A stretch of DNA of 64,000 bases from Paraescarpia echinospica (taxonomy: Eukaryota; Annelida; Polychaeta; Sabellida; Siboglinidae): the NCBI GenBank assembly GCA_020002185.1, contig CM034543.1, positions 3,433,334 through 3,497,333 on the forward strand, in the 5' to 3' direction. The notes beneath the pieces are model-generated. The model saw only the letters and a list, made by a program, of their open reading frames with translations, made no database searches and was not told where the DNA came from. The number at the start of each line of letters is the position of its first letter. Position 1 is the stretch's first letter. The position numbers were made by a program, and so were the translations under genes. This document shows, in pieces, positions 20,261 through 50,112 of the stretch.

Positions 20261-20333
20261 AACATTCATGAAACGGCTAGTAAGTTCAGCAAGTCCGAAG
20301 ATGCACCATTGTTGGCAGGGGAAGTTGTCCAAG
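20261..20333 (+). CDS. MTMR2: MTMR2 exon 2 (residues 72-95)
   Basis: Acceptor TTTTTTTGCAG; encodes NIHETASKFSK then EDAPLLAGEVVQ, matching the EEPPLLPGE stretch that leads into the PH-GRAM domain. It ends after one base of a codon (phase 1) at GTCCAAG/GTGTAG. The last 30 bases and the donor are the founder of the array that follows. Confidence 0.9.
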
Positions 20334-21326
20334 GTGTAGGTAGGTGTCACCATTGTTGGCAGGGGGAGTTGTCCAAGGTGTAGGTAGGTGTCACCACTGT
20401 TGGCAGGGGAAGTTGTTCAAGGTGTAGGTAGGTGTCACCATTGTTGGCAGGGGGAGTTGTCCAAGGTGTAGGTAGGTGTCACCACTGTTGGCAGGGGAAG
20501 TTGTTCAAGGTGTAGGTAGGTGTCACCATTGTTGGCAGGGGAAGTTGTTCAAGGTGTAGGTAGGTGTCACCACTGTTGCAGGGGAAGTTGTTCAAGGTGT
20601 AGGTAGGTGTCACCATTGTTGGCAGGGGAAGTTGTTCAAGGTGTAGGTAGGTGTCACCACTGTTGGCAGGGGAAGTTGTTCAAGGTGTAGGTAGGTGTCA
20701 CCACTGTTGGCAGGGGAAGTTGTTCAAGGTGTAGGTAGGTGTCACCATTGTTGGCAGGGGAAGTTGTTCAAGGTGTAGGTAGGTGTCACCACTGTTGCAG
20801 GGGAAGTTGTTCAAGGTGTAGGTAGGTGTCACCATTGTTGGCAGGGGAAGTTGTTCAAGGTGTAGGTAGGTGTCACCACTGTTGGCAGGGGAAGTTGTTC
20901 ATGGTGTAAGTAGGTGTCACCATTGTTGGCAGGGGAAGTTGTTCAAGGTGTAGGTAGGTGTCACCATTGTTGGCAGGGGGAGTTGTCCAAGGTGTAGGTA
21001 GGTGTCACCACTGTTGGCAGGGGAAGTTGTTCAAGGTGTAGGTAGATGTCACCACTGTTGACTGGGGAAGTTGTCCAAGGTGTAGGTAGATGTCACCACT
21101 GTTGACTGGGGAAGTTGTCCAAGGTGTAGGTAGATGTCACCACTGTCCAAGGTGTAGGTAGATGTCACCACTGTTGACTGGGGAAGTTGTCCAAGGTGTA
21201 GGTAGATGTCACCACTGTTGACTGGGGAAGTTGTCCAAGGTGTAGGTAGATGTCACCACTGTTGACTGGGGAAGTTGTCCAAGGTGTAGGTAGATGTCAC
21301 CACTGTTGACTGGGGAAGTTGTCCAA
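20304..21326 (+). repeat. 44-bp minisatellite built from exon 2 donor junction
   Basis: About 23 copies of a 44-bp unit. Each holds the end of exon 2 (CACCATTGTTGGCAGGGGAA, GTTGTCCAAG) plus the donor GTGTAGGTAGGTGT. The exon itself is copy 1. Proximal copies read GGCAGGGG and GTAGGTGT; the last seven or so read GACTGGGG and GTAGATGT. Reading past the true donor gives 16 extra codons and then TAG, so use of a distal donor would truncate the protein. Confidence 0.95.
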
Positions 21327-21928
21327 CAGTTTGTTCTCTGTGACTGTTAATATCAAACTGTGACACAAAGATTCAGAATTCACAATTTGCATTTGTTAAA
21401 TAGTAAATACAGTGACATTAAGTCTTAGTAGCCTGAGACACACTTTTCCACAGGTGGTAACATTTGTCTATGATGTCACGGTCATGGGCGCTAGTTATTA
21501 ACAGGAAGTTCATTTAATTGCTTTGAAAATGGCAATATTGCAACAGTGCTGAACACCAACGAGGTTAGCGATTAAATCACCTGGCATCCATCTAAATGTT
21601 TTGTTTACTTTCTAATAGCTAAAAGCTCAAATTGCGATTTTTCGGACTTGTTTATCTTGGTCTTTTGAACATTATATTAATTAATAAAACAAATGAATCA
21701 CAGACAATCTCCTGTAAGATATAAAACTATATCAAAGCTGCCAGCTGTGATAGCATAATACCCATACTGCACATAGTAAGACAGCTTGTGGCATTGGTGG
21801 AGAACACAGGTTGCGTGCTCCTAATGTCTGTCGTTAATAATTTTTTTTTTAATTTATGTTCTTGTGAATGACGAGAACTAACAAGCATTAACTTCCCAGA
21901 AGACTAGATATAAACTTGTGTTTTGTAG

Positions 21929-22023
21929 CTAAAGATGTGTCTTACTTGTGCCCATTCACGGGCCCCACTCGAGGCATTCTCACACTCACAAACTACAAGT
22001 TGTACTTCACAAGTTCAGACAGG
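21929..22023 (+). CDS. MTMR2: MTMR2 exon 3 (residues 96-127, PH-GRAM)
   Basis: Acceptor TTTTGTAG; completes an Ala codon with exon 2, then [20 protein letters not shown] and [11 protein letters not shown], the first strands of the PH-GRAM domain. Donor GTGAGT, phase 0. Confidence 0.93.
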
Positions 22024-22420
22024 GTGAGTGGGTTCAGGGTGTCTGCATCAGTTTCAAACTACGTCTGTCTGCATCTGGGGTTGAAATTTCTGATCAGACG
22101 ACAAGACAACAATTATTTTATTAGCAATAACAGCTGTTTAATTTAATAAACTGACTGATATATGTTTGATGAAAAAGTCCATTAGGGTGGGAATTGGATG
22201 ATTACAGATTTTCGTTTTGATTAAGAATATTATATATTGACACAGTTATGAAGTTATCTTATTTTCTTCAATTTGGCAATTGTCCATTGCTTTCTTTATG
22301 AAATTAATTGTCGGATTTAGTTCTTATTTTAACATGGCTATGTTATTGGTATGTGACCAGGATCAGTATCTATTTCGTGTGGATATGACTGGGACAGGGA
22401 CACTTGACATTTGTTTGCAG

Positions 22421-22531
22421 GAGATTCCCGTTGTTCTACATGTCCCACTTGGAGTCGTCAGTCGAGTGGAAAAAGTCGGCCGAGTAACAAGTCGTGGAGA
22501 AAACTCATACGGCATAGAGATCATGTGTAAG
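22421..22531 (+). CDS. MTMR2: MTMR2 exon 4 (residues 128-164, PH-GRAM)
   Basis: Acceptor TTGTTTGCAG; encodes [20 protein letters not shown] and [14 protein letters not shown], the second half of PH-GRAM. Donor GTTAGT, phase 0. Confidence 0.95.
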
Positions 22532-22544
22532 GTTAGTGTTGAGT

Positions 22545-23505
22545 AGCGATCTGTGTCAGTGTGTGTCAACAGTCTGTGTCAGAGTGTGTCAACAGTCTGT
22601 GTCAGTGTGTGTTGATGACAGTCTGTGTCAGTGTTGTTGACAGTCTGTGTCACTGTGTGTCAACAGTCTGTGTGTTGATAGTCTAGTCTATGTCAGTGTG
22701 TTGACAGTCAGTGTCAGTGAGTTGACAGTCTGTGTCAGTGTAGTGACATTCTGTGTCAGTGCGATGACAATCTGTGTCAGTGTGTGTTGACAATCTGTAT
22801 CAGTGTATGTTGATAACAGTCTGTGTCAGTGTTGTTGACAGTCTGTGTCACTGGGTGTCAACAGTCTGTGTGTTGACAGTCTAGTCTATGTCAGTGTGTT
22901 GACAGTCAGTGTCAGTGAGTTGACAGTCTGTGTCAGTGTGTGCTGGCAGTCTGTGTCACTGTGGTGACAGTCTGTGTCAGTGTGTATTGACAGTCTGTAT
23001 AACTGTGTGTTGATGACAGTCTGTGTCATTGTGTGTCAACAGTCTGTGTGTTGACAGTCTAGTCTATATCAGTGTGTTGACAGACAGTGTCAGGGAGTTG
23101 ACAGTCGATGTCAGTGGGTAGACTGTCTGTGTCAGTGTGTGACAATCTGTGTCAGTGTGTGCTGACAGTCTGTGTCAGTATGCTGACAGTTTGTGTCAGT
23201 GTGTTGACAGTCTATGTCAGTGTGTATTGACAGCCTATGTCAGTGTGTTGACAGTCACTGTCAGTGTGTTGACAGTCTTTGTCAGTGTATGACAGTCTTT
23301 GTCAGTGTGTTGACAGTCTGTGTCAGTGTGTTACAGTCTATATCAGTGTGCGACAGTCTGTGTCAGTGTGTGACAGTATGTGTCCGTGTGTTGACAGTCT
23401 GTGTCAGTGTGTGACAGTCTATATTAGTGTGCGACAGGCTGTGTCAGTGTGTGACAGTCTATATCAATCAGGGTGCGACAGTCTGTGTCAGTGTGTGACA
23501 GTCTG
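22545..23505. repeat. Intron 4 minisatellite (CAGTCTGTGTCAGTGTGTTGA family)
   Basis: Irregular tandem units of about 20-30 bases fill nearly all of the 1-kb intron between exons 4 and 5. Blocks of higher-order repetition of about 240 bases are visible (for example 22600-22740 against 22795-22935). Units contain TGACAG before TCTGTG, resembling an acceptor, and run to within 20 bases of the exon 5 acceptor. Confidence 0.9.
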
Positions 23506-23522
23506 TATGGTGTTTGTTGCAG

Positions 23523-23624
23523 GACATGAGGAATCTTCGTTTTGCCCACAGACAGGAGCAACATTCCCGCAGACAAGTCTTTGAGAAACTCAACCAGTTC
23601 GCCTTCCCTGTCACCAACAAACTC
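23523..23624 (+). CDS. MTMR2: MTMR2 exon 5 (residues 165-198)
   Basis: Acceptor TGTTTGTTGCAG; encodes DMRNLRFAHRQEQHSRRQVF and NQFAFPVTNKL, the linker between PH-GRAM and the phosphatase domain. Donor GTGAGA, phase 0. Confidence 0.94.
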
Positions 23625-23793
23625 GTGAGACATCTTATATTGTCACAGTAACACTTAACTCGTAACCCCTTGTCATTTTATGAAATGAGTCCCTGCAGCT
23701 CATGCACAAAATGTAGGTGCATCTTGTTTTTTGCATTTATCTTTTTTGTACTTCACTTGCTGACAATGCGAGTTGTGATCATCTTGGTTCTAA

Positions 23794-23964
23794 ATGGTTC
23801 TAAATATACTAATTGAATTCCACACAACACAAGATGGTTCTAAATATACTAATTGAATTCAACACAAGATGGTTCTAAATGTACTAATTGAATTCCACAC
23901 AAGATGGTTCTAAATGTACTAATTGAATTCCATACAAGATGGTTCTAAATGTACTAACTGAATT
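23794..23964. repeat. About 36-bp tandem repeat in intron 5
   Basis: Five copies of a unit with GATGGTTCTAAATGTACTAA and TTGAATTCCACACAA. It lies 170 bases after exon 5 and does not resemble a splice junction. The rest of the 1.3 kb intron is unremarkable. Confidence 0.85.
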
Positions 23965-24916
23965 TTAAATTAAACATGTGAAACCGATCTGGGTGTGTTT
24001 GCCTAAAATGCTACATATATCTACAAACTCTTTATCAGACATCAGTTGATTTTTTCAAACAGTGCTCATTCAAAAACTTCCAATACAAAGCCAAATGACA
24101 AATACCCACAATGCACAGCAGATGCACTAAAGAATCCTGTGACACAAATTACCTAAGTATCCAGACAATGACGCCACCTCCATGTGTTATCAAGGCTAAA
24201 GTTGGGGAAGGGGCGTCCAGGCATTTTAGGCAGTTGGGATACAAAGGGTTAATGTGTGATTTTTATTCAGATCAGATTTCTAATTAAATTTGTCAAATTT
24301 TAAGAGGAAAAACTACATACACATGTTTATTTGCAATTATATTACAATACCGTATGTAGTGATTTACCAGTAGATATCAATGTGGCCTTGTAAATGACAG
24401 CATGACTCACAAATGTGCTCATACACTTTATTGTAATGCTTTTATTGATGTCTTGACATTGTTGCCACTTACTGAATACTTATTTGTATTAACCCTGAAT
24501 CCCTGATAGTTTCTTGCTTTTCTTGATCTATAAATGCAGAGGTGCCAAGTTTATCGCTTTGGCGATGTAACTCGCACTTTTTCTTCATTTTGTTATAATC
24601 TCACATTCTGCTGGTTTAGTTTAAGAAATTTGCCACAAGACTGATATTTCACACTTCAAAAAAATAATTACTCATTTAAATCCAAATGTCATTACCTCAT
24701 GGCAGATTTACCACATTTTGTGCAATATTACTTGGAACCTCTGTGAGTGGTTTTGGCATATCACTCTCATAGTCATCATGTCATCAGTTTTATAAGTACA
24801 TTATCAACAGTACTTTATAATATTATGATAGACATCAACAATAAATCAAATTGTTACAGCTTCCTGTGTCTGACGTAGACATTGCTTGCCCTGAGACTGT
24901 CTTTGTTATCTTTCAG

Positions 24917-25003
24917 CCTCTCTTTGCCTATGAGTTCAAGGAACGTTACTCGGGACCCAGCGGCTGGAATGTGTATGACGCGGTGTCAGAGCTACGACGC
25001 CAG
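24917..25003 (+). CDS. MTMR2: MTMR2 exon 6 (residues 199-227)
   Basis: Acceptor TTATCTTTCAG; encodes PLFAYEFKERYSGPSGWNVY and AVSELRRQ, the start of the phosphatase region. Donor GTATGT, phase 0. Confidence 0.95.
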
Positions 25004-25145
25004 GTATGTCACCAGTGTGTCACAACAGTGTCACAATTATGTCACCACAGTGTCACCAGTGTGTCACAATTATGTCGTTATAGTGTCATCAGTCTCACCA
25101 CTGTGTCACCATTATGTCACCATTGTGTCACCATTGTGTCACCGA
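25004..25145. repeat. Short GTGTCACC array starting at exon 6 donor
   Basis: About nine irregular units of 14-16 bases, GTGTCACCATTATGTCACCA-like, begin at the donor itself (CCAG/GTATGTCACC against CCAGTGTGTCACAA). Confidence 0.8.
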
Positions 25146-25482
25146 GTCAGTTATTCTTTTTGATACACTTGACAGCAACGTTCTTCCATACAAACTCCAA
25201 CAAGTAGACAAACCCACTGAAAACCATTGCTTTAATTTTCACTCTTACTTTATTTAGTTATGTCACTTGTCATATTACATGATTCCTCCTTTGTTTACCC
25301 AAAACACTGACTGATAGTAATATATTAAGAAACAAATTGAATTTTTTAATACTTCATTATATTACAGACTAGTGCTTACTCGTGATTTCATCTTGGATTC
25401 TTGCAGCTTATTATGCTTACTTTGTGCTGTGATACTGAAATGACTGGATCCTGTTGGTCCCTACTCTATGTTGTTTGTGCAG

Positions 25483-25557
25483 GGCGTCCCCACTGACAGC
25501 TGGAGGATCTCACGCGTCAACGAGAACTATGAATTAAGTGACACATACCCGGCCATT
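25483..25557 (+). CDS. MTMR2: MTMR2 exon 7 (residues 228-252)
   Basis: Acceptor TTGTTTGTGCAG; encodes [20 protein letters not shown] then TYPAI, matching the conserved WRI-x-x-x-N-x-x-Y-x-x-x-x-(T/S)YP block. Donor GTGAGT, phase 0. Confidence 0.96.
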
Positions 25558-26107
25558 GTGAGTCTTATTTCTTGCTTGAAGCTGTCTACTCAGTTTAGCC
25601 CATCACGAATTTGATTCTTTGATGTCCAGATATGTAATGTGTGTGTGTCAGGCATAGGGCAATTAACATGAGTAATTAATTAACTAAATTACAATTAACT
25701 AAGACATTTTCCAATTAAATAAACCTCGTACATTTATCAGGTAAATTAAATTAACCTCCAACATTTTTTAATTTAATTAGCAATTAACTGGATTAACAAT
25801 TAACTTTAATTAGATTAACAATTAAATTTGGTGTTTAAAAAATTCTTGATTAGCTTCATACATGTAGATTAATTTGTATTTGTTTAAGTTTAAGCACATG
25901 ATGGAAGTCATTTATAATATAAAACACATTTGGCAGCAGTCTGCTAAAGATGAATTACCTTTACACATATTGATGTGGTATCACCCATGTACGTGAGTAC
26001 CCCTATGTATGTACAGAGATACAGTTAAGACATTTGTCTGCTTGAATGTTTACTTTAAATAGAGTTGTTCAGAAGCCATGGTTAGCCATCAGTAACATAT
26101 TAATCTC

Positions 26108-26538
26108 TGTGCTTTTAACATGTTACTCTGTGTTAACAGTTCTCTATGCTTTTAACATGTTACTCTGTGTTACAGTTCTCTATGCTATTAACATGTTACT
26201 CTGTGTTACAGTTCTCTATGCTTTTAACATGTTACTCTGTGTTACAGTTCTCTATGCTTTTAAGAAGTTACTATGTGTTACATTTCTCTATGCTTTTAAC
26301 ATGTTACTCTGTGTTACAGTTCTCTATGCTTTTAATAAGTTACTATGTGTTACAGTTCTCTATGCTATTAACATGTTACTCTGTGTTACAGTTCTCTATG
26401 CTTTTAACAAGTTACTATGTGTTACAGTTCTCTATGCTTTTAACAAGTTACTATGTGTTACAGTTCTCTATGCTTTTATTATGTTACTCTGTGTTACAGT
26501 TCTCTGTGCTTTTAACGTGTTACTCATGTGTGTTACAG
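26108..26538 (+). repeat. 36-bp minisatellite built from exon 8 acceptor junction
   Basis: About 12 copies of a 36-bp unit that includes TCTGTGTTACAGTTCTCTAT followed by GCTTTTAACATGTTAC. The true acceptor and exon start read GTGTGTTACAG/TTCTCTGTGCC, so each copy carries an AG acceptor and the first codons of exon 8. The array is open in the exon frame (12 codons per unit, one unit with an extra codon). This gives a continuous frame from about 26146 through exon 8. Confidence 0.95.
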
Positions 26539-26613
26539 TTCTCTGTGCCAGCGACTGCCACAGATGACGACTTGAGATATGTGGCTTCGTTCCGTAGTCG
26601 CTCTCGCATACCG
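26539..26613 (+). CDS. MTMR2: MTMR2 exon 8 (residues 253-277)
   Basis: Acceptor TGTGTTACAG; encodes FSVPATATDDDLRYVASFRS then RSRIP. This is the LxVPxxxxDxxLxxVASFRSRxRxP block of myotubularins. Donor GTGAGT, phase 0. Confidence 0.96.
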
Positions 26614-26674
26614 GTGAGTGTCTGCCATGAGTCAGAATTGTGAGTCAGTGCTGTAAATCAGAGCACTGCGACTG

Positions 26675-26769
26675 TGAGGTCGTGGTCTGTGTAGATACTG
26701 TTATGGTCAGTGTAGGTGATGTCATGGTCTGTGTAGATACTGTCATGGTCTGTGTAGATACTGTTATGG
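26675..26769. repeat. 21-bp minisatellite, segment 1 (intron 8)
   Basis: Units TGTCATGGTCTGTGTAGATAC, about four to five copies, cut by the hAT insertion at 26778. Confidence 0.9.
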
Positions 26770-26777
26770 TCTGTGTG

Positions 26778-28097
26778 CAGAGCTGGGACGTAACGAAGTA
26801 CAAGTACTTCGTTACTGTACTTGAGTAGAAAAGTTTACTTTTCGTGAGTAACGAAGTACATTTTTTAAGGAGTACTTTTACTTGTAACGAAGTACAAATG
26901 TGTGTACTTTTCATAAATGTAACGAAGTATCCATAATTTAAAGTTAAAAAGTTGGAGCTCCAAAAATATTAGTAACGAACGATAATGCCTGAAGCCCGGA
27001 ACTGGTTTTCCCCAGCATATATCTATAAATAGATATCAGCCGGAGCAACAACTGGTAGTCTTTTCTGATTGGCCTATCATTGCCATTACCAGGCATGATC
27101 ACCAGGTGGCGTGAATATAGCCAAGATTATATGATGTCATTCACGTTCAAAGATTTATTATGGAAGGATCAGCTGAAAATGATCATTTGCAGCATCCATT
27201 GCCATACTTATCCAGTATGTTTGAGATTAAGTCAGTTCACGGGGCTACTGTTAAGTTGATCTGTCTGTTGTGTGCGCCGATATGCCAGATCTGTTGATCA
27301 CCTTCGAACCTTCCTTACACACGTGGTCGGTAAATTATTAGTGTTAGACTTACGCAGGTAAAAGGTATTCTTGCCTCAATTTTGCTGTGCAAATATATTA
27401 CACCATAACATGTCGTTATTTGTACAAAAGGTGCAAGTGCATTTAATATGAACAAGATATGTTCTTAGATTTAGGTTCGAGCTATTAGTGACCTGAATAA
27501 CGTCCCGAATTGCATTAGTGATAAACGCATGTCGAAATTCACACATTATCGCCCCAAAACATTCCCTTAGCTGTGACAATTTAAACTGCTAATGGTTACT
27601 CAGATTTATCTTAATAATAAAATAAGTATTGTTAGGGCCTATAAATGTTGTTTATATGTATTCTTGGTTCATATTTTCAATATTTGTCTCACATATTGAA
27701 CCTCAGGCCTGGTCGTAGACAATATTTAATGTTCACTGTACACACTACTGAATAGGGTATTACCATTATTTTATTTCTTTTGTCACTGTCTTGCATAGTA
27801 TGTATAGTTTGTTTGAGGAGCCAGCCTGTCTCTGTATCCTGCTGAGGATCCTGTCCTGTTCAATGAAGTGTTTGTTTTGTACACTACGGAATTTACTTGT
27901 TTGTTTGCAGTGGGTGACCATGTCAACAGTTTTTTAGAAAAGTACTTTTGCATTTACTTCAAGTACATTTGTTTACTTTTTACTTGTACTTCAAGTACAT
28001 TTTTCAAAAAGTACTTTTACTTTTACTTGAGTAGCTTTTTCCAAAGTTACTTGTACTTTTACTCAAGTACAAAATAAATGTACTTGTTACAGCTCTG
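26778..28097. mobile_element. Non-autonomous hAT element, Tol2-like ends, 1320 bp
   Basis: Starts CAGAGCTGGGACGTAACGAA and ends TGTTACAGCTCTG, flanked by TCTGTGTG on both sides (26770-26777 and 28098-28105), a perfect 8-bp duplication. Both ends are filled with GTACTTNAGTA-type motifs, as in Tol2-group hAT elements. No transposase frame; the internal 27000-27900 shows nothing recognisable. The duplication lies inside a repetitive array that itself contains TCTGTGTG, which slightly weakens it as proof, but both termini are convincing. Confidence 0.9.
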
Positions 28098-28605
28098 TCT
28101 GTGTGGGTGATGTCATGGTTTGTGTAAGTGCTGACGTGGTCTGTTTAGGTGATGTCATGGTCTGTGTAGATACTGTCATGGTCTGTGTAGATACTGTTAT
28201 GGTCTGTGTGGGTGATGTCATGGTTTGTGTAAGTGCTGTCGTGGTCTGTTTAGGTACTGTCATGGTCTGTGTAAGTGCTGTCGTGGTCTGTTTAGGTACT
28301 GTCATGGTCTGTGTCGATACTGTCATGGTCTGTGTAGATACTGTCATGGTCTGTGTAGATACTGTCATGGTCTGTGTAGATACTGTCATGGTCTGTGTAA
28401 GTACTGTCATGGTCTGTGCAGATACAGTCATGGTCTGTGTATATACTGTCATGGTCAGTGTAGGTGATGTCATGGTCTGTGTGGGTGATGTCATGGTCTG
28501 TGTAAGTGCTGTCGTGGTCTGTGTATGTACTGTCATGGTCTGTGTAAGTGCTGTCATGGTCTGTGTAGATACTGTCATGGTCTGTGTAGATACTGTCATG
28601 GTCTA
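28098..28605. repeat. 21-bp minisatellite, segment 2 (intron 8)
   Basis: About 24 units of TGTCATGGTCTGTGTAGATAC with variants GTGGGTGA, GTAAGTGC and GTAGGTGA at the 3' half. It is open in several frames on both strands; not coding. Confidence 0.95.
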
Positions 28606-29457
28606 CAGGGTGCAAGTAGTCCGTTGGACTGGCTGACTCAGAGAAACAACTAGTCCTAATATTGTTTTACTAGCTCTTAAAAATAAATGTGTCAGGTACC
28701 ACCATACTGTACATATATATATATATATATATGACAGTTATGGCACATAATAAAACTAAAAGTGACTTTATTTCATAAAGAAAACACGCTGTTTCTCATT
28801 TCAGTTAAATGTTCAACTAAATATGTCATTAATACACACAAATACATGTGATTTCATAGATCCAGTTGCAGTCATCAGAAGAAATGACTTTAGTTTAATC
28901 AGGGGCAGCAAACGGCAGTGGTGGAACGGGCGGTGCCAGCAGAATTTGAAGCCTGACGCCGATAGCGACGAAGGACCAACATTGTCGAACTAAGTTGCAG
29001 CATTTGGCCTATACTTTTCATTAGCGTTTCCGTTCCTGAAGCCAACTGAACAATCAATAGCATTGCTGGCGTTTGGTAACTTGCTAAAATAATCACCTGA
29101 TGCGGGAATAATGCATCTATGATGGGATAGCACGTAACTATGTCTGTAACCCACGCAGGTATGTTTGTCCATGTCGCTCATCACTCATGGTCGCTAGGCG
29201 GCACTACCTATCCTAACCAGATGTAAACAGTTGCCATTTATATTCTCCATGTTCAGCAAGTTTCCTATTCGACAGTCGTATGGAATATTTAGCTGTGTGT
29301 GATAATTCCGTCGCAACACCCAGCTATCATGTACACAGCGTAAATTAATTCACATAATCACAGCTAGTCTGATGGGACTGCTCCTCTAAACATGGACTAG
29401 TCCGGTCACTGAAACTACTTGTCCAGGACGACCGGAGTGGCCTTATTTCGCAGCCTG
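28606..29457. mobile_element. Probable hAT-like insertion splitting the 21-bp array
   Basis: An 852-bp non-repetitive block interrupts the array. Left end CAGGGTGCAA and complement of the right end CAGGCTGCGA match at 8 of 10. An ACTAGTCC motif lies about 43-56 bases inside both ends. Only GGTCT is duplicated at the flanks, so the exact ends or the duplication have decayed. Confidence 0.6.
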
Positions 29458-29810
29458 GGTCTGTGTAGATACTGTCATGGTCTGTGTAGGTGCTATGGTG
29501 GTCTGTGGAGATACTGTCTTGGTCTGTGTAAGTACTGTCATGGTCTGTGTAGATTCTGTCATGGTATGTGTAGGTGTTGTCGTGGTCTGTGTAGGTGCTG
29601 TCATGGTCTGTGTAGATACTGTCATGGTCTGTGTAGATACTGTCATGGTATGTGTAGGTGTTGTCATGGTCTGTGTAGGTGCTGTCATGGTCTGTGTAGA
29701 TACTGTCATGGTCTGTTTAAATACTGTCATGGTATGTGTAGGTGTTGTCATGGTCTGTGTAGGTGCTGTCATGGTCTGTGTAGATACTGTCATGGTATGT
29801 GTAGATGCTG
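29458..29810. repeat. 21-bp minisatellite, segment 3 (intron 8)
   Basis: About 17 units; several read GTGTAGGTGCTGTCATGG, which is the exon 9 acceptor and first four codons (GTAG/GTGCTGTCGTGG). Confidence 0.95.
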
Positions 29811-30265: not shown

Positions 30266-30325
30266 ATAGCCAGTATGGTCTGTAGGTGTTGTCATGATCT
30301 GTATAGACACTCTCATGGTCCGTAG
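30266..30325. repeat. 21-bp minisatellite, segment 4, ending at exon 9 acceptor
   Basis: Three diverged units run directly into exon 9; the last, ATGGTCCGTAG/GTGCTGTCGTGG, is the functional acceptor. Confidence 0.8.
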
Positions 30326-39770: not shown

Positions 39771-39894
39771 ACTGTGTGTATGTGCATGTGTGTAAATCAA
39801 TGTGTATACATAATGTCATCCAAAGGACGGGCATTTTTGCTAGGTACTGAAATGCTCAAACACAGTTATTATGATCCGTTATTGCAACTGTTAA

Positions 39895-40345
<451 letters not shown>

Positions 40346-40389
40346 AAACAACTGTTTTTGTGATTCAAGCCAGTTTACATATGCATTCT

Positions 40390-41195
40390 GGGATGACATG
40401 TGCACTCTGTCACCTGTGGAATGACATGCAGTCTGTCACCTGTGGAATGACATGCAGTCTGTCACCTGTGGAATGACATGTGCACTCTGTCACCTGTGGA
40501 ATGACGTGCTGTCTGTCACCTGTGGAATGACGTGCAGTCTGTCACCTGTGGATTGACGTGCAGTCTGGCACCTGTGGAATGACATGCAATCTGTCACCTG
40601 TGGATTGACATGCAGTCTGTCACCTGTGGAATGACATGCACTCTGTCACCTGTGGATTGACGTGCAGTCTGGCACCTGTGGAATGACATGCAATCTGTCA
40701 CCTGTGGATTGACATGCAGTCTGTCACCTGTGGAATGACATGCACTCTGTCACCTGTGGATTGACGTGCAGTCTGGCACCTGTGGAATGACATGCAATCT
40801 GTCACCTGTGGATTGACATGCAGTCTGTCACCTGTGGAATGACATGCACTCTGTCACCTGTGGAATGACATGCAGTCTGTCACCTGTGGAATGACATGCA
40901 GTCTGTCACCTGTGGATTGACATGCAGTCTGTCACCTGTGGAATGACATGCAGTCTGTCACCTGTGGAATGACATGCACTCTGTCACCTGTGGAATTGAC
41001 ATGCAGTCTGTCACCTGTGGAATGACATGCAGTCTGTCACCTGTGGAATGACATGCACTCTGTCACCTGTGGAATGACATGCAGTCTGTCACCTGTGGAA
41101 TTGACATGCAGTCTGTCACCTGTGGATTGACATGCACTCTGTCACCTGTGGAATGACATGCAGTCTTTCACCTGTGGAATGACATGGACTCTGTC
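40390..41195. repeat. 26-bp minisatellite in intron 12
   Basis: About 31 units of GTCTGTCACCTGTGGAATGA followed by CATGCA, with CACT/CAGT, GTG/GAC and AAT/ATT variants. A 104-bp higher-order block recurs at 40555-40860. It ends 40 bases before exon 13; no clear copy of the acceptor was seen in the unit. Confidence 0.95.
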
Positions 41196-41234
41196 ACCCA
41201 TGCGGAGTCTGACACTGTGTCTGTGTGCCTACAG

Positions 41235-41342
41235 TTGACGGCCCTGTCTCTGCTGATGTTGGATCCGTACTACCGCACCATCCATGGCTTTGAGGTGCTC
41301 ATTGAGAAGGAGTGGGTCAGCTTTGGGCACAAGTTTGCTCAG
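41235..41342 (+). CDS. MTMR2: MTMR2 exon 13 (residues 436-471)
   Basis: Acceptor TGTGTGCCTACAG; encodes [20 protein letters not shown] and [16 protein letters not shown], the helix after the catalytic loop and the EKEWxSFGHKF block. Donor GTTTGT, phase 0. Confidence 0.97.
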
Positions 41343-42417
41343 GTTTGTGTGGAAGATGTCTCTGGTGTTTTTAGATACTGTAACCTGTAGTGGGCTCATT
41401 GCTGCATGGGGTAGATAAATGATAGACATGGTGAACATACAAGACTAGGGGATGATCAAACTGAATGCACCAATGTGTCACACATATATGAACACTTGTA
41501 GGATGTTGCCCCCTCTCCTTCCGTTTAAGCAAAAGTTTTAAAAAAAATTTGCCAGGTCTAGTACATTTTAAATAGAATTTATTGTTTTGAAACAAAAAAT
41601 ATGTTAATTGAAACAGAATTTGCCTTTTTTAAATGGAATTAAAGCAGAATTTGCATTTTTTTTAAATTAGTGTCCCCATATATTGCATACATGAACCAGT
41701 TTCCAGTGACCAGCAGGGGACAGCTGACACAGTTTACAACAATCATAGAAAACACAGTATTGCGAACAATCGTATGAACCCTTAACTCACAGGGAGTTAT
41801 AAAGAAGTACAAGGGATGAATCCCTGAAATTTTGGCACCCAAGATGGAAAGCATCTAGGAGTAGCTTAACAGTTATAAGTAGTATAAACATACACAGATA
41901 CACTAACCTGATTATAGTCAAATATGGTAACATTATATGAACTGTGGTTTTGTGAAGTGGGTCTAAATAAGCAAAGTATTTTTAGAGTAACGCTCTAGGT
42001 GCCAACGGGTTCCACTTTTTCAAATAATAAAAACCAACTCATGTATGCAGACACATCCACGCACGCATGCACGCATACACACGCACACATCCACACATTC
42101 ACATACCCACCCACACACATGCACGCACACACCCATACACCCACGCACGTACCCACACACGCATGCACGCATCCACGCACGCACCCACACACGCACGCAC
42201 GCACGCATCGACACATGCATGCACACATACACACACACATACACACACATACATACACACATACACATGTACATACACACACACACACATACACACACAC
42301 ACAAACGTTTGTTAGGGTTAAGACAGATTAGAAAATACTACTAAAATAAAAGATGCCTGTATAAGGACAGTGGCCATTCACTTCACCGTGTCCAGTCTGT
42401 CTGTTTGTTGTTTGCAG
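41343..42417 (+). other. MTMR2 intron 13
   Basis: 1.1 kb; no coding signal apart from a CA-rich microsatellite near its end. The first 650 bases show no repeat or transposon. Confidence 0.6.
42041..42304. repeat. Imperfect (CA)n / CACG microsatellite in intron 13
   Basis: About 260 bases of CA dinucleotides interspersed with CGCA, CATG and CCCA. It produces several overlapping His/Thr- or Cys/Val-rich frames with no coding meaning. Confidence 0.95.
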
Positions 42418-42510
42418 CGGGTCGGTCACGGAGAAGACAAACACTCAGACGCTGACCGCTCGCCCGTCTTCCTCCAGTTTATCGACTGTGTCTGGCAGGT
42501 CACGAGACAG
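42418..42510 (+). CDS. MTMR2: MTMR2 exon 14 (residues 472-502)
   Basis: Acceptor TTGTTTGCAG; encodes [20 protein letters not shown] and [11 protein letters not shown], a hallmark myotubularin block. Donor GTGGGT, phase 0. Confidence 0.97.
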
Positions 42511-42680
42511 GTGGGTCATAGGTCAGGTCATGACACTGGTGGGTCATGGGCAGGTGTGTCATAGGTCAGGTCATGACACTGGTGGGTCATATGTAAGGTC
42601 AAGAGGCAAGTGGGTCATAGGTCAGGTCATGAGACAGGTGGGTCATATATCAGATCACAAGACAGGTGAGTCATAAGTGA
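42505..42680 (+). repeat. Short array built from exon 14 donor junction
   Basis: About five units of 28-34 bases with GTCATGAGACAGGTGGGTCA or CATGACACTGGTGGGTCATA. The founder is the exon end CACGAGACAG/GTGGGTCATA. Confidence 0.85.
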
Positions 42681-42961
42681 GGCCGCAAAACCAGTACACC
42701 CTAATGGTTCAGTCATGCAAAAATCTTCTTTTTGTATTGCACTTTTGGCTTCCTTGGTAATGTTGTCTGAAACTCCTGGACTGTACTGTTTGTCAACCCT
42801 TTAGACCATAGCTGGTTTTTTAAAGTTCTCGTTTCCCCACTTATTTAACCTGAAACATGAAAATGTGAAATCCACACATTCAAAAGTAATTTCTGTTTTC
42901 AAAACCATTCACAAGATGGCACCACCACACAATGCAGTATTACACATTTGTTTGGGCTGAG

Positions 42962-44490
42962 TTTCGCTGTTTTGGAGTGTCAGTCTACGAGTGAGTTTGG
43001 CTGATTTGGAGTGTCAGTCTACGAGTGAGTTTGGCTGATTTGGAGTGTCAGTCTACGAGTGAGTTTGGCTGATTTGGAGTGTCAGTCTATGAGTGAGTTT
43101 GGCTTATTTGGAGTGTCAGTCTACGAGTGAGTTTGGCTGATTTGGAGTGTCAGTCTACGAGTGAGTTTGGCTGATTTGGAGTGTCAGTCTACGAGTGGGT
43201 TTGGCTGATTTGGAGTGTCAGTCTACGAGTGGGTTTGGCTGATTTGGAGTGTCAGTCTACGAGTGGGTTTGGCTGATTTGGAGTGTCAGTCTACGAGTGG
43301 GTTTGGCTGATTTGGAGTGTCAGTCTACGAGTGAGTTTGGCTGATTTGGAGTGTCAGTCTACGAGTGGGTTTGGCTGATTTGGAGTGTAAGTCTACGAGT
43401 GGGTTTGGCTGATTTGGAGTGTCAGTCTACGAGTGACTTTGGCTGATTTGGAGTGTCAGTCTACGAGTGAGTTTGGCTGATTTGGAGTGTCAGTCTACGA
43501 GTGAGTTTGGCTGATTTGGAGTGTCAGTCTACGAGTGAGTTTGGCTGACTTGGAGTGTCAGTCTACGAGTGGGTTTGGCTGATTTGGAGTGTAAGTCTAC
43601 AAGTGGGTTTGGCTGATTTGGAGTGTCAGTCTACGAGTGACTTTGGCTGATTTGGAGTGTCAGTCTACGAGTGAGTTTGGCTGATTTGGAGTGTCAGTCT
43701 ACGAGTGAGTTTGGCTGATTTGGAGTGTCAGTCTACGAGTGGGTTTGGCTGATTTGGAGTGTCAGTCTACGAGTGAGTTTGGCTGATTTGGAGTGTCAGT
43801 CTACTAGTAAGTTTGGCTGATTTGGAGTATCGGTCTACGAGTGAGTTTGGCTGATTTGGAGTGTCGGTCTACGAGTGAGTTTGGCTGATTTGGAGTGTAA
43901 GTCTACGAGTGAGTTTGGCTGATTTGGAGTGTCAGTCTACGAGTGGGTTTGGCTGATTTGGAGTGTCAGTCTACGAGTGAGTTTGGCTGATTTGGAGTGT
44001 CAGTCTACTAGTAAGTTTGGCTGATTTGGAGTATCGGTCTACGAGTGAGTTTGGCTGATTTGGAGTGTCGGTCTACGAGTGAGTTTGGCTGATTTGGAGT
44101 GTAAGTCTACGAGTGAGTTTGGCTGATTTGGAGTGTCAGTCTACGAGTGGGTTTGGCTGATTTGGAGTGTCAGTCTACGAGTGAGTTTGGCTGATTTGGA
44201 GTGTAAGTCTACGAGTGGGTTTGGCTGATTTGGAGTGTCAGTCTACGAGTGAGTTTGGCTGATTTGGGGTGTCAGTCTACGAGTGGGTTTGGCTGATTTG
44301 GAGTGTAAGTCTACGAGTGAGTTTGGCTGATTTGGAGTGTAAGTCTACGAGTGGGTTTGGCTGATTTGGAGTGTCAGTCTACGAGTGAGTTTGGCTGATT
44401 TGGAGTGTCAGTCTACGAGTGAGTTTGGCTGATTTGGAGTGTCGGTCTACGAGTGAGTTTGGCTGATTTGGAGTGTCAGTCTATGAGTAA
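42962..44490. repeat. 34-bp minisatellite in intron 14, about 45 copies
   Basis: Units GAGTTTGGCTGATTTGGAGT, GTCAGTCTACGAGT, with GAGT/GGGT, CAG/AAG/CGG variants. A block of about 200 bases (43780-43980) recurs at once (43980-44180), indicating higher-order duplication. No splice-junction similarity found. Confidence 0.97.
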
Positions 44491-44662
44491 GTCTAAAGGG
44501 TTTTAATTAAATAAATATTCGTTTATAAACATAACACGTGAAATACGTAGTATGAATGTGTAACATTTGAAGCACCAAACAGTTTATTATGCAAGATCAC
44601 TACAAATCACTGTATGACTGTTGTCTCTTGAGTCTAGCATTCTGTGACTTGTTATGTTGCAG

Positions 44663-44776
44663 TTTCCGAATGCGTTTGAGTTCAACGAACACTTTCTGAT
44701 GGTTATCCTGGACCACCTGTACAGCTGTCTCTTTGGAACCTTCCTCGCCAACTGCGATATGCAGCGAGCTAAGGAG
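44663..44776 (+). CDS. MTMR2: MTMR2 exon 15 (residues 503-540)
   Basis: Acceptor GTTATGTTGCAG; encodes [20 protein letters not shown] and [18 protein letters not shown], the FEFNExFL and SCxFGTFL blocks. Donor GTGAGT, phase 0. Confidence 0.97.
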
Positions 44777-45280
44777 GTGAGTAGACCCTACTGACACCTA
44801 ACACTATCTTATGTCTGTCACTGACATAAGTAGGTAGATCTTACCAACACGTAACAAGATCTTATGTTTGTCACCGACAGAAGTAGACAGACTTTATTAA
44901 ATGTCATTCTCCAGGATATCATACATTTCATTAAAATCTTCCACTTTGAAACCACATTCTGGGCAAATCACTGACGTTAACATTTTTATTGTGGTTGGCT
45001 GATTATGTTTTAACAATGTTGTATTTTAAGCGACTTTGAATTTATAACTGGAGACATGGCCCCATACAAGTAGAATTTATTATATTGTTATTAATAAATG
45101 GTTAGTTTATATTAACTCTTAGGTGCATAACACCAAACAGTTGCCTTTTGTTTTCCTTTAAATGCAATACTATCTTATGTATGTCACGGAAATGTTGTCT
45201 TCTACTCTTCTCAGAAGTGGTTTGTATTTATAAAAAAAGATAAATCTAATGATATGAATGTGCTGGTAGCTGTGTATGTC

Positions 45281-45410
45281 TTATATGTAGGGGGTGTGAC
45301 AAGACAGTGTCCTTGTAGTCATATGGCAACTGTCATTGTGTTGTGTGTAGGGGGTGCATGACAAGACAGTGTCCCTGTGGTCATGTCAGCTGTTATTGTG
45401 TTGTGTGTAG
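45281..45410 (+). repeat. Two decoy copies of exon 16 acceptor and start (60-bp spacing)
   Basis: TGTGTAG/GGGGTGCATGACAAGACAG at 45351 and TATGTAG/GGGGTGTGACAAGACAG at 45291 precede the true start at 45411 by exactly 60 and 120 bases and copy about 30 coding bases. Both contain in-frame stops (TGA in the first, TAG just before the true exon in the second). Confidence 0.93.
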
Positions 45411-45590
45411 GGGGTGCGTGACAAGACGGTGTCCCTGTGGTCATATGTCAACTGCCAACTGGAAGAATTCACAAACCCGCTGTTTGCGCCGTACGTCCAC
45501 CAGCATGTGTTGTTTCCCGTGGCCAGTCTGCGGCGTATAGAGCTGTGGACGGGCTACTACGTCCGCTGGAACTCTCGCATGAGACCACAG
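45411..45590 (+). CDS. MTMR2: MTMR2 exon 16 (residues 541-600)
   Basis: Encodes [48 protein letters not shown] and [10 protein letters not shown], the conserved end of the phosphatase fold. The acceptor TTGTGTGTAG is the third of three similar sites. Donor GTGAGC, phase 0. Confidence 0.96.
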
Positions 45591-45694
45591 GTGAGCATTG
45601 TAATTCGACTCTGTCAGATGGCGCAGTTAGTTCGGGCAGCTCTAATACTGTCACTGTGTCAAAATGATGTGCTAAATTTCTTGAGTAAAGTTTA

Positions 45695-46055
45695 ACACTT
45701 TTTTTGTGAGCATTGTGTGTTGTTTATGTTTTATGCGACCCTTTGGTGTGGTTTATAGAAGTTTTATTTGAGGCCTTTGTGTTGTTTTTAAAAGTTTTAT
45801 GAGAGTTTTGTGTGTTTTTATAGAATTTTTATGTAAGCCTTTTGTGTTGTTTATAGAAGTTTTACAGGAGCTTTGTGTGTTGTTTGTACAGGTTTTTGTA
45901 TGAGCTAGGTGTGTTGTTTACGTCATTTTTACATAACATTTTTTTACATTTACCCTGTATGTTGTTTATATAATTATTATTACTTGAGCCTTGTGTATTG
46001 TTTATAGAATTATTACTCAAGCCTTGTGTTTTATTTATAGATATTTTACGTCAGC
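45695..46055. repeat. Diverged about 45-bp repeats in intron 16
   Basis: Seven or eight loose units of the type GAGCCTTGTGTTGTTTATAGAAGTTTTA. Some read CAGGAGCTTTGTG, resembling the exon 17 acceptor and start CAG/GAGCCACTTC. Confidence 0.7.
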
Positions 46056-46067
46056 TTTGTTTCTCAG

Positions 46068-46226
46068 GAGCCACTTCATCTGCGGAACCGAGAACTGCTG
46101 CAGTTAAAAGCCCAGCTACAGCGCCGCGTCGACGAACTCAGTCTGGAGCTTGATGCAAAGAACGCCAAAACTAACATGACATCATCATCACCAGCTGCCA
46201 CTGTCCTGTCATCTGTGAATGTCTGA
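46068..46226 (+). CDS. MTMR2: MTMR2 exon 17 (residues 601-652, stop)
   Basis: Acceptor TTTGTTTCTCAG; encodes EPLHLRNRELLQLKAQLQRR, then VDELSLELDAK, a heptad-like helix equivalent to the coiled coil that dimerises MTMR2, and a Ser/Ala/Val-rich end SSVNV before TGA. The last residues V-N-V could act as a class II PDZ ligand; that is speculative. Confidence 0.93.
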   Translation, partial: EPLHLRNRELLQLKAQLQRRVDELSLELDAKNAKTNMTSSSPAATVLSSVNV

Positions 46227-49200
46227 TGTGACGTCTGGCATCATCGTCACCAGCCCCCCATAGTCTTGTCATCTGTCAGTGTCTGACGTGATGGCTGGTG
46301 TCACCTGTCAGTGTCTGATGTCATAGCTGGTGTCATCTGTCAGTGTCTGACGTGATGGCTGGTGTCACCTGTCAGTGTCTGATGTGATGGCTGGTGTCAT
46401 CTGTCAGTGTCTGACATGATGGCTCGTGTCACCTGTCAGTGTATGATGTGATGGTTGGTGTCATCTGTCAGTGTCTGATGTCATAGCTGGTGTCATCTGT
46501 CAGTGTCTGACGTGATGGCTGGTGTCACCTGTCAGTGTCTGATGTCATGGCTGGTGTCATCTGTCAGTGTCTGACATGATGGCTCGTGTCACCTGTCAGT
46601 GTATGATGTGATGGTTGGTGTCATCTGTCAGTGTCTGATGTCATAGCTGGTGTCATCTGTCAGTGTCTGATGTGATGGCTGGTGTCACCTGTCAGTGTAT
46701 GATGTGATGGTTGGTGTCATCTGTCAATGTCTGATGTCATAGCTGGTGTCATCTGTCAGTGTCTGACGTGATGGCTGGTGTCACCTGTCAGTGTCTGATG
46801 TCATAGCTGGTGTCATCTGTCAGTGTCTGACGTGATGGCTGGTGTCACCTGTCAGTGTCTGATGTCATGGCTGGTGTCATCTGTCAGTGTCTGACATGAT
46901 GGCTCGTGTCACCTGTCAGTGTATGATGTGATGGTTGGTGTCATCTGTCAGTGTCTGATGTCATAGCTGGTGTCATCTGTCAGTGTCTGACGTGATGGCT
47001 GGTGTCACCTGTCAGTGTCTGATGTCATGGCTGGTGTCATCTGTCAGTGTCTGACGTGATGGCTGGTGTCACCTGTCAGTGTCTGATGTCATGGCTGGTG
47101 TCACCTGTCAGTGTCTGATGTCATGGCTGGTGTCATCTGTCAGTGTCTGACGTGATGGCTGGTGTCACCTGTCAGTGTCTGATGTCATGGCTGGTGTCAT
47201 CTGTCAGTGTCTGACGTGATGGCTGGTGTCACCTGTCAGTGTCTGATGTCATAGCTGGTGTCATCTGTCAGTGTCTGACGTGATGGCTGGTGTCACCTGT
47301 CAGTGTCTGATGTCATGGCTGGTGTCATCTGTCAGTGTCTGACATGATGGCTCGTGTCACCTGTCAGTGTATGATGTGATGGTTGGTGTCATCTGTCAGT
47401 GTCTGATGTCATAGCTGGTGTCATCTGTCAGTGTCTGACGTGATGGCTGGTGTCACCTGTCAGTGTATGATGTGATGGTTGGTGTCATCTGTCAGTGTCT
47501 GATGTCATAGCTGGTGTCATCTGTCAGTGTCTGGCGTGATGGCTGGTGTCACCTGTCAGTGTATGATGTGATGGTTGGTGTCATCTGTCAGTGTCTGATG
47601 TCATAGCTGGTGTCATCTGTCAGTGTCTGATGTGATGGCTGGTGTCACCTGTCAGTGTATGATGTGATGGTTGGTGTCATCTGTCAGTGTCTGATGTCAT
47701 AGCTGATGTCATCTGTCAGTGTCTGACGTGATGGCTGGTGTCACCTGTCAGTGTCTGATGTGATGGCTAGTGTCATCTGTCAGTGTCTGATGCGACGGCT
47801 GGTATCATCTGTCAGTGTCTGATGTGATGGCTGGTGTCATCTGTCAGTGTATGATGTGATGGCTGGTGTCATCTGTCAGTGTCTGATGTGATGGCTGGTA
47901 TCATCTGTCAGTGTCTGATGTGATGGCTGGTATCATCTGTCAGTGTCTGATGTGATGGCTGGTGTCACCTGTCAGTGTATGATGTGATGGTTGGTGTCAT
48001 CTGTCAGTGTCTGATGTCATAGCTGGTGTCATCTGTCAGTGTCTGACGTGATGACTGGTGTCACCTGTCAGTGTATGATGTGATGGTTGGTGTCATCTGT
48101 CAGTGTCTGATGTCATAGCTGGTGTCATCTGTCAGTGTCTGACGTGATGGCTGGTGTCACCTGTCAGTGTCTGATGTGATGGCTAGTGTCATCTGTCAGT
48201 GTCTGATGCGACGGCTGGTATCATCTATCAGTGTCTGATGTGATGGCTGGTGTCATCTGTCAGTGTCTGACATTATGACTGGTGTCACCTGTCAGTGTCT
48301 GATGTGATGGCTGGTGTCATCTGTCAGTGTCTGACATGATGGCTGGTGTCACCTGTCAGTGTCTGATGTGATGGCTGGTGTCATCTGTCAGTGTCTGATG
48401 TGATGGCTGGTGTCATCTGTCAGTGTCTGACATGATGGCTGGTGTCACCTGTCAGTATATGATGTCATGGCTGGTGTCATCTGTCAGTGTCTGACGTGAT
48501 GGCTGGTGTCACCTGTCAGTGTCTGATGTCATGGCTGGTGTCACCTGTCAGTGTCTGATGTCATGGCTGGTGTCATCTGTCAGTGTCTGACGTGATGGCT
48601 GGTGTCACCTGTCAGTGTCTGATGTCATGGCTGGTGTCATCTGTCAGTGTCTGACGTGATGGCTGGTGTCACCTGTCAGTGTCTGATGTCATCGCTGGTG
48701 TCATCTGTCAGTGTCTGACGTGATGGCTGGTGTCACCTGTCAGTGTCTGATGTCATGGCTGGTGTCATCTGTCAGTGTCTGACATGATGGCTCGTGTCAC
48801 CTGTCAGTGTATGATGTGATGGTTGGTGTCATCTGTCAGTGTCTGATGTCATAGCTGGTGTCATCTGTCAGTGTCTGACATGATGGCTGGTGTCACCTGT
48901 CAGTGTATGATGTGATGGTTGGTGTCATCTGTCAGTGTCTGATGTCATAGCTGGTGTCATCTGTCAGTGTCTGGCGTGACGGCTGGTGTCACCTGTCAGT
49001 GTATGATGTGATGGTTGGTGTCATCTGTCAGTGTCTGATGTCATAGCTGGTGTCATCTGTCAGTGTCTGATGTGATGGCTGGTGTCACCTGTCAGTGTAT
49101 GATGTGATGGTTGGTGTCATCTGTCAGTGTCTGATGTCATAGCTGGTGTCATCTGTCAGTGTCTGACGTGATGGCTGGTGTCACCTGTCAGTGTCTGATG

Positions 49201-50112
49201 TGATGGCTAGTGTCATCTGTCAGTGTCTGATGCGACGGCTGGTATCATCTGTCAGTGTCTGATGTGATGGCTGGTGTCATATGTCAGTGTATGATGTTAT
49301 GGCTGGTGTCATCTGTCAGTGTCTGATGTGATGGCTGGTATCATCTGTCAGTGTCTGATGTGATGGCTGGTATCATCTGTCAGTGTCTGATGTGATGGCT
49401 GGTATCATCTGTCAGTGTCTGATGTGATGGCTGGTGTCACCTGTCAGTGTATGATGTGATGGTTGGTGTCATCTGTCAGTGTCTGATGTCATAGCTGGTG
49501 TCATCTGTCAGTGTCTGACGTGATGACTGGTGTCACCTGTCAGTGTATGATGTGATGGTTGGTGTCATCTGTCAGTGTCTGATGTCATAGCTGGTGTCAT
49601 CTGTCAGTGTCTGACGTGATGGCTGGTGTCACCTGTCAGTGTCTGATGTGATGGCTAGTGTCATCTGTCAGTGTCTGATGCGACGGCTGGTATCATCTGT
49701 CAGTGTCTGATGTGATGGCTGGTGTCATCTGTCAGTGTCTGACATGATGACTGGTGTCACCTGTCAGTGTCTGATGTGATGGCTGGTGTCATCTGTCAGT
49801 GTCTGACATGATGGCTGGTGTCACCTGTCAGTGTCTGATGTGATGGCTGGTGTCATCTGTCAGTGTATGATGTGACGGCTGGTGTCATCTGTCAGTGTCT
49901 GATGTGATGGCTGGTGTCACCTGTCAGTGTCTGATGTGATGGCTGGTGTCATCTGTCAGTGTCTGACATGATGGCTGGTGTCACCTGTCAGTGTCTGATG
50001 TGATGGCTGGTGTCATCTGTCAGTGTCTGATGTGATGGCTGGTGTCATCTGTCAGTGTCTGATGTGACGGCTGGTGTCATCTGTTAGTGTCTGATGTGAC
50101 GACTGGTGTCAT
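46205..50112 (+). repeat. 32-bp minisatellite, about 120 copies, from stop codon into 3' UTR
   Basis: Units GTGTCATCTGTCAGTGTCTG, ATGTGATGGCTG with CAC/CAT, ACG/ATG, GTC/GTG and ATAG variants. The end of the coding region, CTGTCATCTGTGAATGTCTG/ATGTGACGTCTG, is clearly the founder. Higher-order blocks recur (for example 47390-48260 against 48830-49730). It follows the stop, so it lies in the 3' UTR of MTMR2. Confidence 0.95.

What the first reader, a model, noticed from the sequence alone, without database searches (positions are those of the whole stretch)
20261..50112. Minisatellites seeded from splice junctions throughout one gene
In MTMR2, 11 of 16 introns (2, 4, 6, 7, 8, 9, 11, 12, 14, 15, 16) carry a tandem array that touches an exon edge. 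In introns 2, 7, 8, 9, 11, 14 and 15, and at the stop codon, the repeat unit contains the junction itself: splice site plus about 7-50 coding bases. Unit sizes differ (21, 36, 40, 44, 52, 60 and others) and sequences are unrelated, so this is not one transposable repeat. It looks like a recurring local process that amplifies DNA across exon-intron borders. It could reflect break repair or slippage tied to transcription or R-loops at splice sites, and it supplies spare splice sites on a large scale. I know of intron gain by tandem AGGT duplication, but not of arrays like this at most borders of a gene.
Basis: partly seen in the sequence, partly recalled or inferred. Interest (0 to 1): 0.9.

Follow-up and report, generated by a model that had tools for sequence, protein, structure and literature searches.

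The report
Repeat arrays copied from exon edges
In a tubeworm-like animal gene (MTMR2), about a quarter of the exon edges appear copied over and over into the neighbouring non-coding DNA, a pattern known under the name "mirages" from lancelets, which hints that such copying of exon edges is more widespread among animals than reported.

Summary
The window carries a 17-exon MTMR2 coding gene (654 aa, 95% identical to Ridgeia piscesae), so the host is a siboglinid tubeworm or a close relative. Of 268 window tests 48 nt or more from the edge, none is strong. Random placement of 18 array families in the gene gives 0.5 to 2.0 edge-spanning units on average; 8 were seen (strictest null P = 7e-5, uncorrected for how the gene was chosen). 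A neighbouring arfaptin gene shows a weak, tentative case. The phenomenon has a precedent: "mirage" minisatellites in amphioxus. New here are an annelid host, eight cases in one gene, and one at a stop codon, where no splicing occurs; the last argues against a purely splice-site cause. My preferred reading is tandem duplication across coding edges followed by growth on the free, non-coding side; why edges are favoured is inferred, not shown. No sister-species DNA, reads or RNA could be examined.

The parts
15618..46226 (+). MTMR2 gene, coding part, 17 exons, 654 aa
   Evidence: Splice model and translation; MTMR2 structure 1lw3, E 7.4e-282 over residues 27-646 (652-aa version); Ridgeia piscesae protein P0001, 624 of 654 aligned columns identical (652-aa version); Pfam Myotub-related and GRAM
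20304..21326 (+). 44-bp array at the exon 2 donor and in intron 2; unit = last about 36 coding nt of exon 2 plus donor
   Evidence: TRF; exon edge vs intron score 67, shuffles 18.7; 22 of 22 decoy GT intact
22550..23506 (+). 21-bp array in intron 4, 19 nt after the exon 4 donor and 17 nt before the exon 5 acceptor; no coding bases found in the unit
25007..25143 (+). 11-bp array in intron 6, 4 nt after the exon 6 donor; coding bases not shown (coding-only rank 2 of 36, but below shuffles)
26104..26548 (+). 36-bp array in intron 7; unit = 3' splice site plus first 10 coding nt of exon 8; in frame with exon 8 and stop-free for 402 nt
26679..29810 (+). 21-bp array in intron 8 in three blocks (26679-26776, 28097-28604, 29458-29810); unit read by eye as 9 nt of acceptor plus first 12 coding nt of exon 9; the 40 nt before exon 9 (30326) also align to it
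30742..31168 (+). 52-bp array in intron 9; unit = acceptor plus first about 27 coding nt of exon 10, with 6 nt missing
39226..39772 (+). 40-bp array at the exon 11 donor and in intron 11; unit = last 24 coding nt of exon 11 plus donor
40016..40345 (+). 14-bp array in intron 12, 2 nt after the (GC) donor of exon 12; no coding bases found
42508..42682 (+). 28-bp array at the exon 14 donor and in intron 14; unit = end of exon 14 (about 19 coding nt) plus donor; weakest of the eight
   Evidence: (3 of 60 shuffles reach it)
45286..45454 (+). 60-bp array in intron 15 and the start of exon 16; unit = acceptor plus first 30 or more coding nt of exon 16; 2.8 copies
45700..46049 (+). 33-bp array in intron 16 (two blocks), ending 19 nt before exon 17; no coding bases found
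46180..50112 (+). array cluster spanning the stop codon; main 32-bp block (about 120 copies) from 46267; unit = last about 20 coding nt with TGA plus 3' flank
   Evidence: 116 of 118 copies found keep TGA
4459..7387 (+). 36-bp array in a neighbouring arfaptin gene; unit resembles the acceptor of its last exon (8249-8401), with AT in place of AG in the consensus; tentative
   Evidence: Arfaptin-2 1i49 E 3.1e-15 (Pfam Arfaptin only 17.9 bits, below its cut-off of 32); own edge ranks 1 of 36 with 24+24 nt, 36 vs 30; score 42 vs best of 100 shuffles 40; but coding-only rank 24 of 36

Best explanation
These are mirage-type minisatellites. Shown: each of eight array families consists of tandem copies of a 21-60 bp segment that spans one edge of the coding sequence, with the genuine edge at the end of the array (in intron 8 it lies 516 nt beyond the last block that TRF reports); the eight are unrelated to each other and more frequent than random placement predicts. 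Inferred: each began as a short tandem duplication across the edge (replication slippage, template switching or end joining) and grew on the non-coding side by unequal exchange or further slippage, since growth there leaves one intact edge for splicing or for stopping translation. Inferred, about 0.35 likely as the cause of the enrichment: an edge trap, in which births favour exon-like DNA, births inside exons are removed by selection, and births across an edge survive. This fits donors, acceptors and the stop codon alike. The spare splice sites are probably by-products, with the genuine edge normally used.
For: Own-flank copies at 8 of 34 edges. Window tests of 24 nt: strong hits (z 5 or more) in 12 of 136 within 23 nt of the edge, 4 of 136 at 24-47 nt, 0 of 268 beyond (windows overlap, so these are not independent). 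Label test. Seed-placement nulls. Arrays have GC 0.46, between exons 0.53 and unique introns 0.37. Three donors, four acceptors and one stop codon are involved. Amphioxus precedents have the same anatomy at both 5' and 3' boundaries.
Against: A GC-matched null still expects only 0.67 to 1.97, so simple GC preference does not explain the enrichment; the edge trap needs some other exon property. Ten of 18 families show no coding bases: four lie within 20 nt of an edge, one at 37 nt, and five further away (introns 5, 8b, 10a, 10b, 14b). A decay of copy identity with distance from the exon is seen only in intron 2 (Spearman -0.67), not in introns 7 (0.54, the other way), 9, 11 or 14. There is no RNA evidence that the genuine edges are the ones used.
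Confidence: 0.75

Rival explanations
1. A splice-site or transcription-linked process (R-loops, collisions, breaks at splice sites) creates the arrays.
For: Arrays are G-rich and T-rich on the coding strand (skews 0.26 and 0.27) while unique introns are not (-0.03, 0.01); 16 of 22 families in and around the two genes have G+T above half. None lies in exon 1 to intron 1 (4.6 kb), and 3 of 27 clusters lie outside the two genes.
Against: The longest edge array sits at the stop codon, not at a splice site. Array length does not follow G+T (p 0.31). Two of the eight edge arrays have more C than G on the coding strand (introns 7 and 11).
Confidence: 0.2
2. Chance: minisatellites arise anywhere in this genome at a high rate and this gene was noticed because it happens to have many at edges.
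Against: No placement of 20000 in each of three settings reaches 8 edge-spanning families; in three further settings of 200000 the fraction is 0, 7e-5 and 2e-5. The neighbouring arfaptin gene hints at another case.
Confidence: 0.12
3. The arrays are kept by selection as spare splice sites or coding reserve, for instance in-frame insertions of about 12 residues at exon 8.
For: 63 of 68 decoys found keep the splice core; the exon 8 frame is open for 402 nt through the 36-bp array.
Against: The count of decoys admits only copies within 6 of 20 mismatches, which favours intact ones. Read-through at the donors of exons 2, 11 and 14 meets a stop within 9 to 17 codons. The one arfaptin copy within the threshold has lost its AG. 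The Ridgeia protein has no insertions from the arrays.
Confidence: 0.05
4. Assembly artefact.
For: Not testable here; a globin mirage in the amphioxus draft genome appeared wrongly assembled (PMC3087553, supplement legend).
Against: Eight unrelated units, with copies that differ from one another; the coding frame is intact over 17 exons.
Confidence: 0.04

Closest known systems
Mirage minisatellites of amphioxus (Adh3; globins BflGb6 and BflGb9; compared with PGBD5)
   Same: Tandem repeats that span an exon-intron boundary, at donors or acceptors, unit 10-160 bp, many copies keep AG/GT (PMC3087553, passages of section 16; PMC3902484, passages of section 16)
   Different: Host is an annelid close to Ridgeia; eight in one gene; one at a stop codon. 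Length and somatic instability, and undisturbed splicing, reported for amphioxus, are untested here.
Intron gain by tandem genomic duplication (AGGT model)
   Same: Tandem duplication that supplies splice signals
   Different: No new intron is evident: the arrays lie inside or beside introns of the gene model (search listing with start of abstract only, PMC4974935; the model itself is recalled)
Intron-1 minisatellites of earthworm metallothionein genes (PMC12783039)
   Same: Annelid, minisatellite arrays within an intron; extra copies of exon 4 that are not in the transcript are mentioned
   Different: The 12 of 13 passages seen describe no repeat unit that contains an exon edge; monomers of 25-216 bp in intron 1

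Membership tests
Mirage minisatellites | Tandem repeat unit spans an exon-intron boundary | tested here: met
   7 splice junctions, plus a stop codon edge that is not one
Mirage minisatellites | Both 5' and 3' boundaries affected | tested here: met
   Donors E2, E11, E14; acceptors E8, E9, E10, E16
Mirage minisatellites | Many copies keep AG or GT | tested here: met
   63 of 68 decoys found within 6 mismatches of 20
Mirage minisatellites | Regular splicing not disturbed | not testable with these tools
   No RNA data; a clean 654-aa frame and a Ridgeia model of equal length are only indirect
Mirage minisatellites | Length polymorphism, somatic instability | not testable with these tools
   One haplotype only
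Mirage minisatellites | Cephalochordate host, as in the cases seen in print | tested here: not met
   Best protein match Ridgeia piscesae 95%; best Branchiostoma match among the 120 listed 71% over 93%. Host range is not part of the definition I use.
Transposable element insertions (introner-like) | One shared sequence at many sites | tested here: not met
   The eight units each match their own edge best with 24+24 nt

The most novel reading that the evidence does not exclude
A mutational process that is aimed at the edges of coding sequence, splice junctions and stop codons alike, is active across distant animal lineages (annelids and cephalochordates) and steadily supplies spare splice sites from which new introns or in-frame exon extensions can be drawn.
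Probability: 0.3. Interest if true: 0.8.

Novelty: new member of a known kind. Interest (0 to 1): 0.55.

Why it matters
If edge-seeded minisatellites are common outside lancelets, they are a widespread source of spare splice sites, of gene-model errors and possibly of new introns, and the question of what seeds minisatellites becomes testable: the birth position can be read off against annotated exon edges. The stop-codon case separates a splice-site cause from a coding-edge cause.

Tried and rejected
Host first guessed to be amphioxus because mirages are known there; rejected after the protein search put Ridgeia piscesae far ahead. Arrays of introns 4, 6 and 12a as edge-containing: their scores in the 24+24 test include overlap with the array itself (8 to about 20 nt), so I discounted them; their coding-only ranks are 20, 2 and 36 of 36 and none of the three edges beat its shuffles. 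The intron 14 donor query overlaps its target by 5 nt in the same test. The 26-bp array of intron 12: its nearest edge ranks 23 and 11 of 36. The 34-bp array of intron 14: its nearest edge, the exon 15 acceptor, does rank first with 24+24 nt (30 against 24), but it is not in the top three with coding bases only, and the same query also scores 30 on the unrelated arfaptin array, so I did not count it. Orientation or R-loop signature: base-weighted skew is clear, but the length correlation is not. A gradient of copy identity with distance: only in intron 2; a first version lost register, and the script failed. Arfaptin array: kept as tentative, since coding-only matching fails (rank 24 of 36). 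Array units in viral contigs and in genome contigs, one pattern each: no match. Rfam at gathering scores and tRNA scan: none. A first query with 22 aa of exon 2 found nothing in the PDB. TRF rows with period below 9 or score below 100 were dropped before clustering, leaving 27 clusters from 92 rows; this leaves out, for instance, the CA-rich stretch of intron 13 at 42051-42303. The 21 clusters of MTMR2 were merged to 18 families (three 21-bp blocks of intron 8, two 33-bp blocks of intron 16). Of the 9 papers listed only PMC9921365 was opened. PMC7710358 (listed) uses the word mirages only in a cited title on fly enhancers.
Full report
What the window is. Splicing 17 exons between 15618 and 46226 gives an uninterrupted 654-aa protein. 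It matches the MTMR2 structure 1lw3 (E 7.4e-282, residues 27-646 of the 652-aa version), carries the myotubularin and GRAM domains, and agrees with a Ridgeia piscesae protein at 624 of 654 aligned columns. The next named invertebrate relatives in the list of 120 (of 4864 matches, from the 7985 candidates scored) are at about 74-77% identity over 86-92% of the query. A LINE fragment in intron 10 also has Ridgeia as the only named source among the 120 matches listed. The host is therefore a siboglinid tubeworm or something very close, and at 95% probably not Ridgeia itself (inference). My first model ended exon 2 at 20333; the Ridgeia protein has two more residues there, which places the donor at 20339.

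Check of the observation. TRF gives 92 rows; after dropping periods below 9 and scores below 100, 27 clusters remain, 21 of them starting between exon 2 and the stop codon. To test for coding bases in the units I aligned the terminal 36 coding nt of all 34 edges with their own flank. The exon 16 donor beat 56 of 60 but scored no better than in 8 of 17 other flanks, so I left it out. As a control, 24-nt windows moved along every exon, each tested against both flanks: strong hits (z 5 or more) in 12 of 136 within 23 nt of the edge, 4 of 136 at 24-47 nt, 0 of 268 further in. The windows overlap, and the hits printed (z 4 or more) all come from exons 2, 10, 11 and 16.

Specificity. With each array family against 36 edges (34 of MTMR2, 2 of arfaptin), all eight edge families rank their own edge first with 24+24 nt queries. 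With coding bases only, six rank it first outright, intron 8 ties with the stop-codon edge, and intron 7 is second, since only 10 coding nt are in its unit. The sequences are thus local and unrelated, which speaks against one shared transposable repeat.

More than chance? I placed the seed of each of 18 families at random in the gene and counted seeds with 7 or more coding nt and 2 or more non-coding nt. Expected 0.52 (whole gene), 0.76 (TE part of intron 10 and intron 1 excluded) and 0.95 (same, 1 coding nt enough), 0 of 20000 reaching 8 in each. From exon 2 on, TEs excluded, GC matched: expected 0.67, 0 of 200000; with other arrays also barred as seed ground: 1.97, P = 7e-5; the same without GC matching: 1.46, P = 2e-5.

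Anatomy. Donor arrays (introns 2, 11, 14) run downstream of the exon, acceptor arrays (introns 7, 8, 9, 15) upstream, and the 32-bp array runs 3.9 kb downstream from the stop codon. Matches span 10 to 50 coding nt. Among copies within 6 of 20 mismatches of the genuine junction, 63 of 68 decoys keep AG or GT, and 116 of 118 stop-codon copies keep TGA; the mismatch limit favours intact copies, and in intron 8 it admits only 8 decoys (5 intact). Reading on past the donors of exons 2, 11 and 14 meets a stop within 9 to 17 codons, while the exon 8 frame stays open for 402 nt through its 36-bp array. Copy identity falls with distance from the exon in intron 2 only, of five arrays examined.

A second gene. 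An arfaptin last exon lies at 8249-8401. The 36-bp array at 4459-7387 resembles its acceptor: rank 1 of 36 with 24+24 nt (36 against 30), score 42 against a best shuffle of 40, but rank 24 of 36 with coding bases alone. The single copy within the mismatch limit has AT in place of AG. I count this as suggestive only. Upstream, at 3594, there is an exon-like stretch whose translation resembles the last exon (my reading), with a 20-bp array ending 14 nt before it.

How it most likely works. A short tandem duplication across an edge leaves one intact edge, so it is tolerated, and further copies can accumulate on the free side. That is inferred from the anatomy. Why edges are hit more than intron interiors is not shown. 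A splice- or R-loop-linked cause is weakened by the stop-codon array and by the lack of a length trend, though arrays do lean to G and T on the coding strand (16 of 22 families). An edge trap, in which births favour exonic DNA and only edge-spanning ones survive, would cover all three kinds of edge; but GC content alone does not produce the excess.

Comparison with what is known. In amphioxus such arrays are called mirages: reported for Adh3 and two globin genes, with units of 10-160 bp, both boundaries affected, splicing apparently normal, and length and (at Adh3) somatic instability (PMC3087553, passages of section 16), and discussed for PGBD5, with Adh and troponin C cited (PMC3902484, passages of section 16). 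The original Adh paper is not held; I know it only through these. Nothing on mirages outside cephalochordates turned up in ten searches of the open-access library, of which only searches used the word mirage; that is no proof that none is in print. In the 12 of 13 passages seen, the Ridgeia genome paper mentions tandem repeats only as a TRF step and its reference (PMC9921365). By anatomy this is a mirage set in an annelid, with eight cases in one gene and one of them at a stop codon.

Limits. No DNA of a related species, no reads and no RNA were available; the own-genome search did not complete (nine calls). Everything about rate, age and splicing therefore rests on one window.

Noticed in passing
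31259-31264 and 40015-40020: Introns 10 and 12 of MTMR2 begin with GCAAGT: 2 of 16 introns are GC-AG.
   Followed up: no
26137-26613: The 36-bp array before exon 8 is in frame with exon 8 and stop-free for 402 nt, so use of a decoy acceptor would insert repeats of a peptide of about 12 residues.
   Followed up: partly
3594-3758 and 8249-8401: Two alternative-looking last exons of arfaptin with similar translations; the first is preceded by a 20-bp array ending 14 nt before it.
   Followed up: partly
13474-13965 (minus): Tim10/DDP zinc-finger gene, head to head with MTMR2; the name TIMM8 is recalled.
   Followed up: no
8738-20303: 11.5 kb with no TRF row at all, including MTMR2 exon 1 and intron 1 (4.6 kb), next to an array-dense gene body.
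   Followed up: partly
42958-44492: The 34-bp array of intron 14 matches the exon 15 acceptor best of 36 edges with 24+24 nt (30 against 24), not with coding bases; possibly an old edge array, not counted.
   Followed up: partly
32173-36232 (minus), 37011-38906, 86-2134 and 60032-61195 (plus), 52023-56072 (plus): Retroelements: two LINEs inside intron 10, further LINE pieces, and an LTR element with a 1042-aa RT/RNase H/integrase ORF (the 86-2134 piece and the outer limits judged from the ORF lists alone).
   Followed up: no
59106-60096: AT-rich 71-bp array with many CTATAG motifs, unlike the genic arrays.
   Followed up: no
39190-39249: Exon 11 itself holds two similar stretches coding for HWLSN and HWLDH; one copy inside the intron 11 array carries the upstream stretch too, a second-order duplication.
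   Followed up: no
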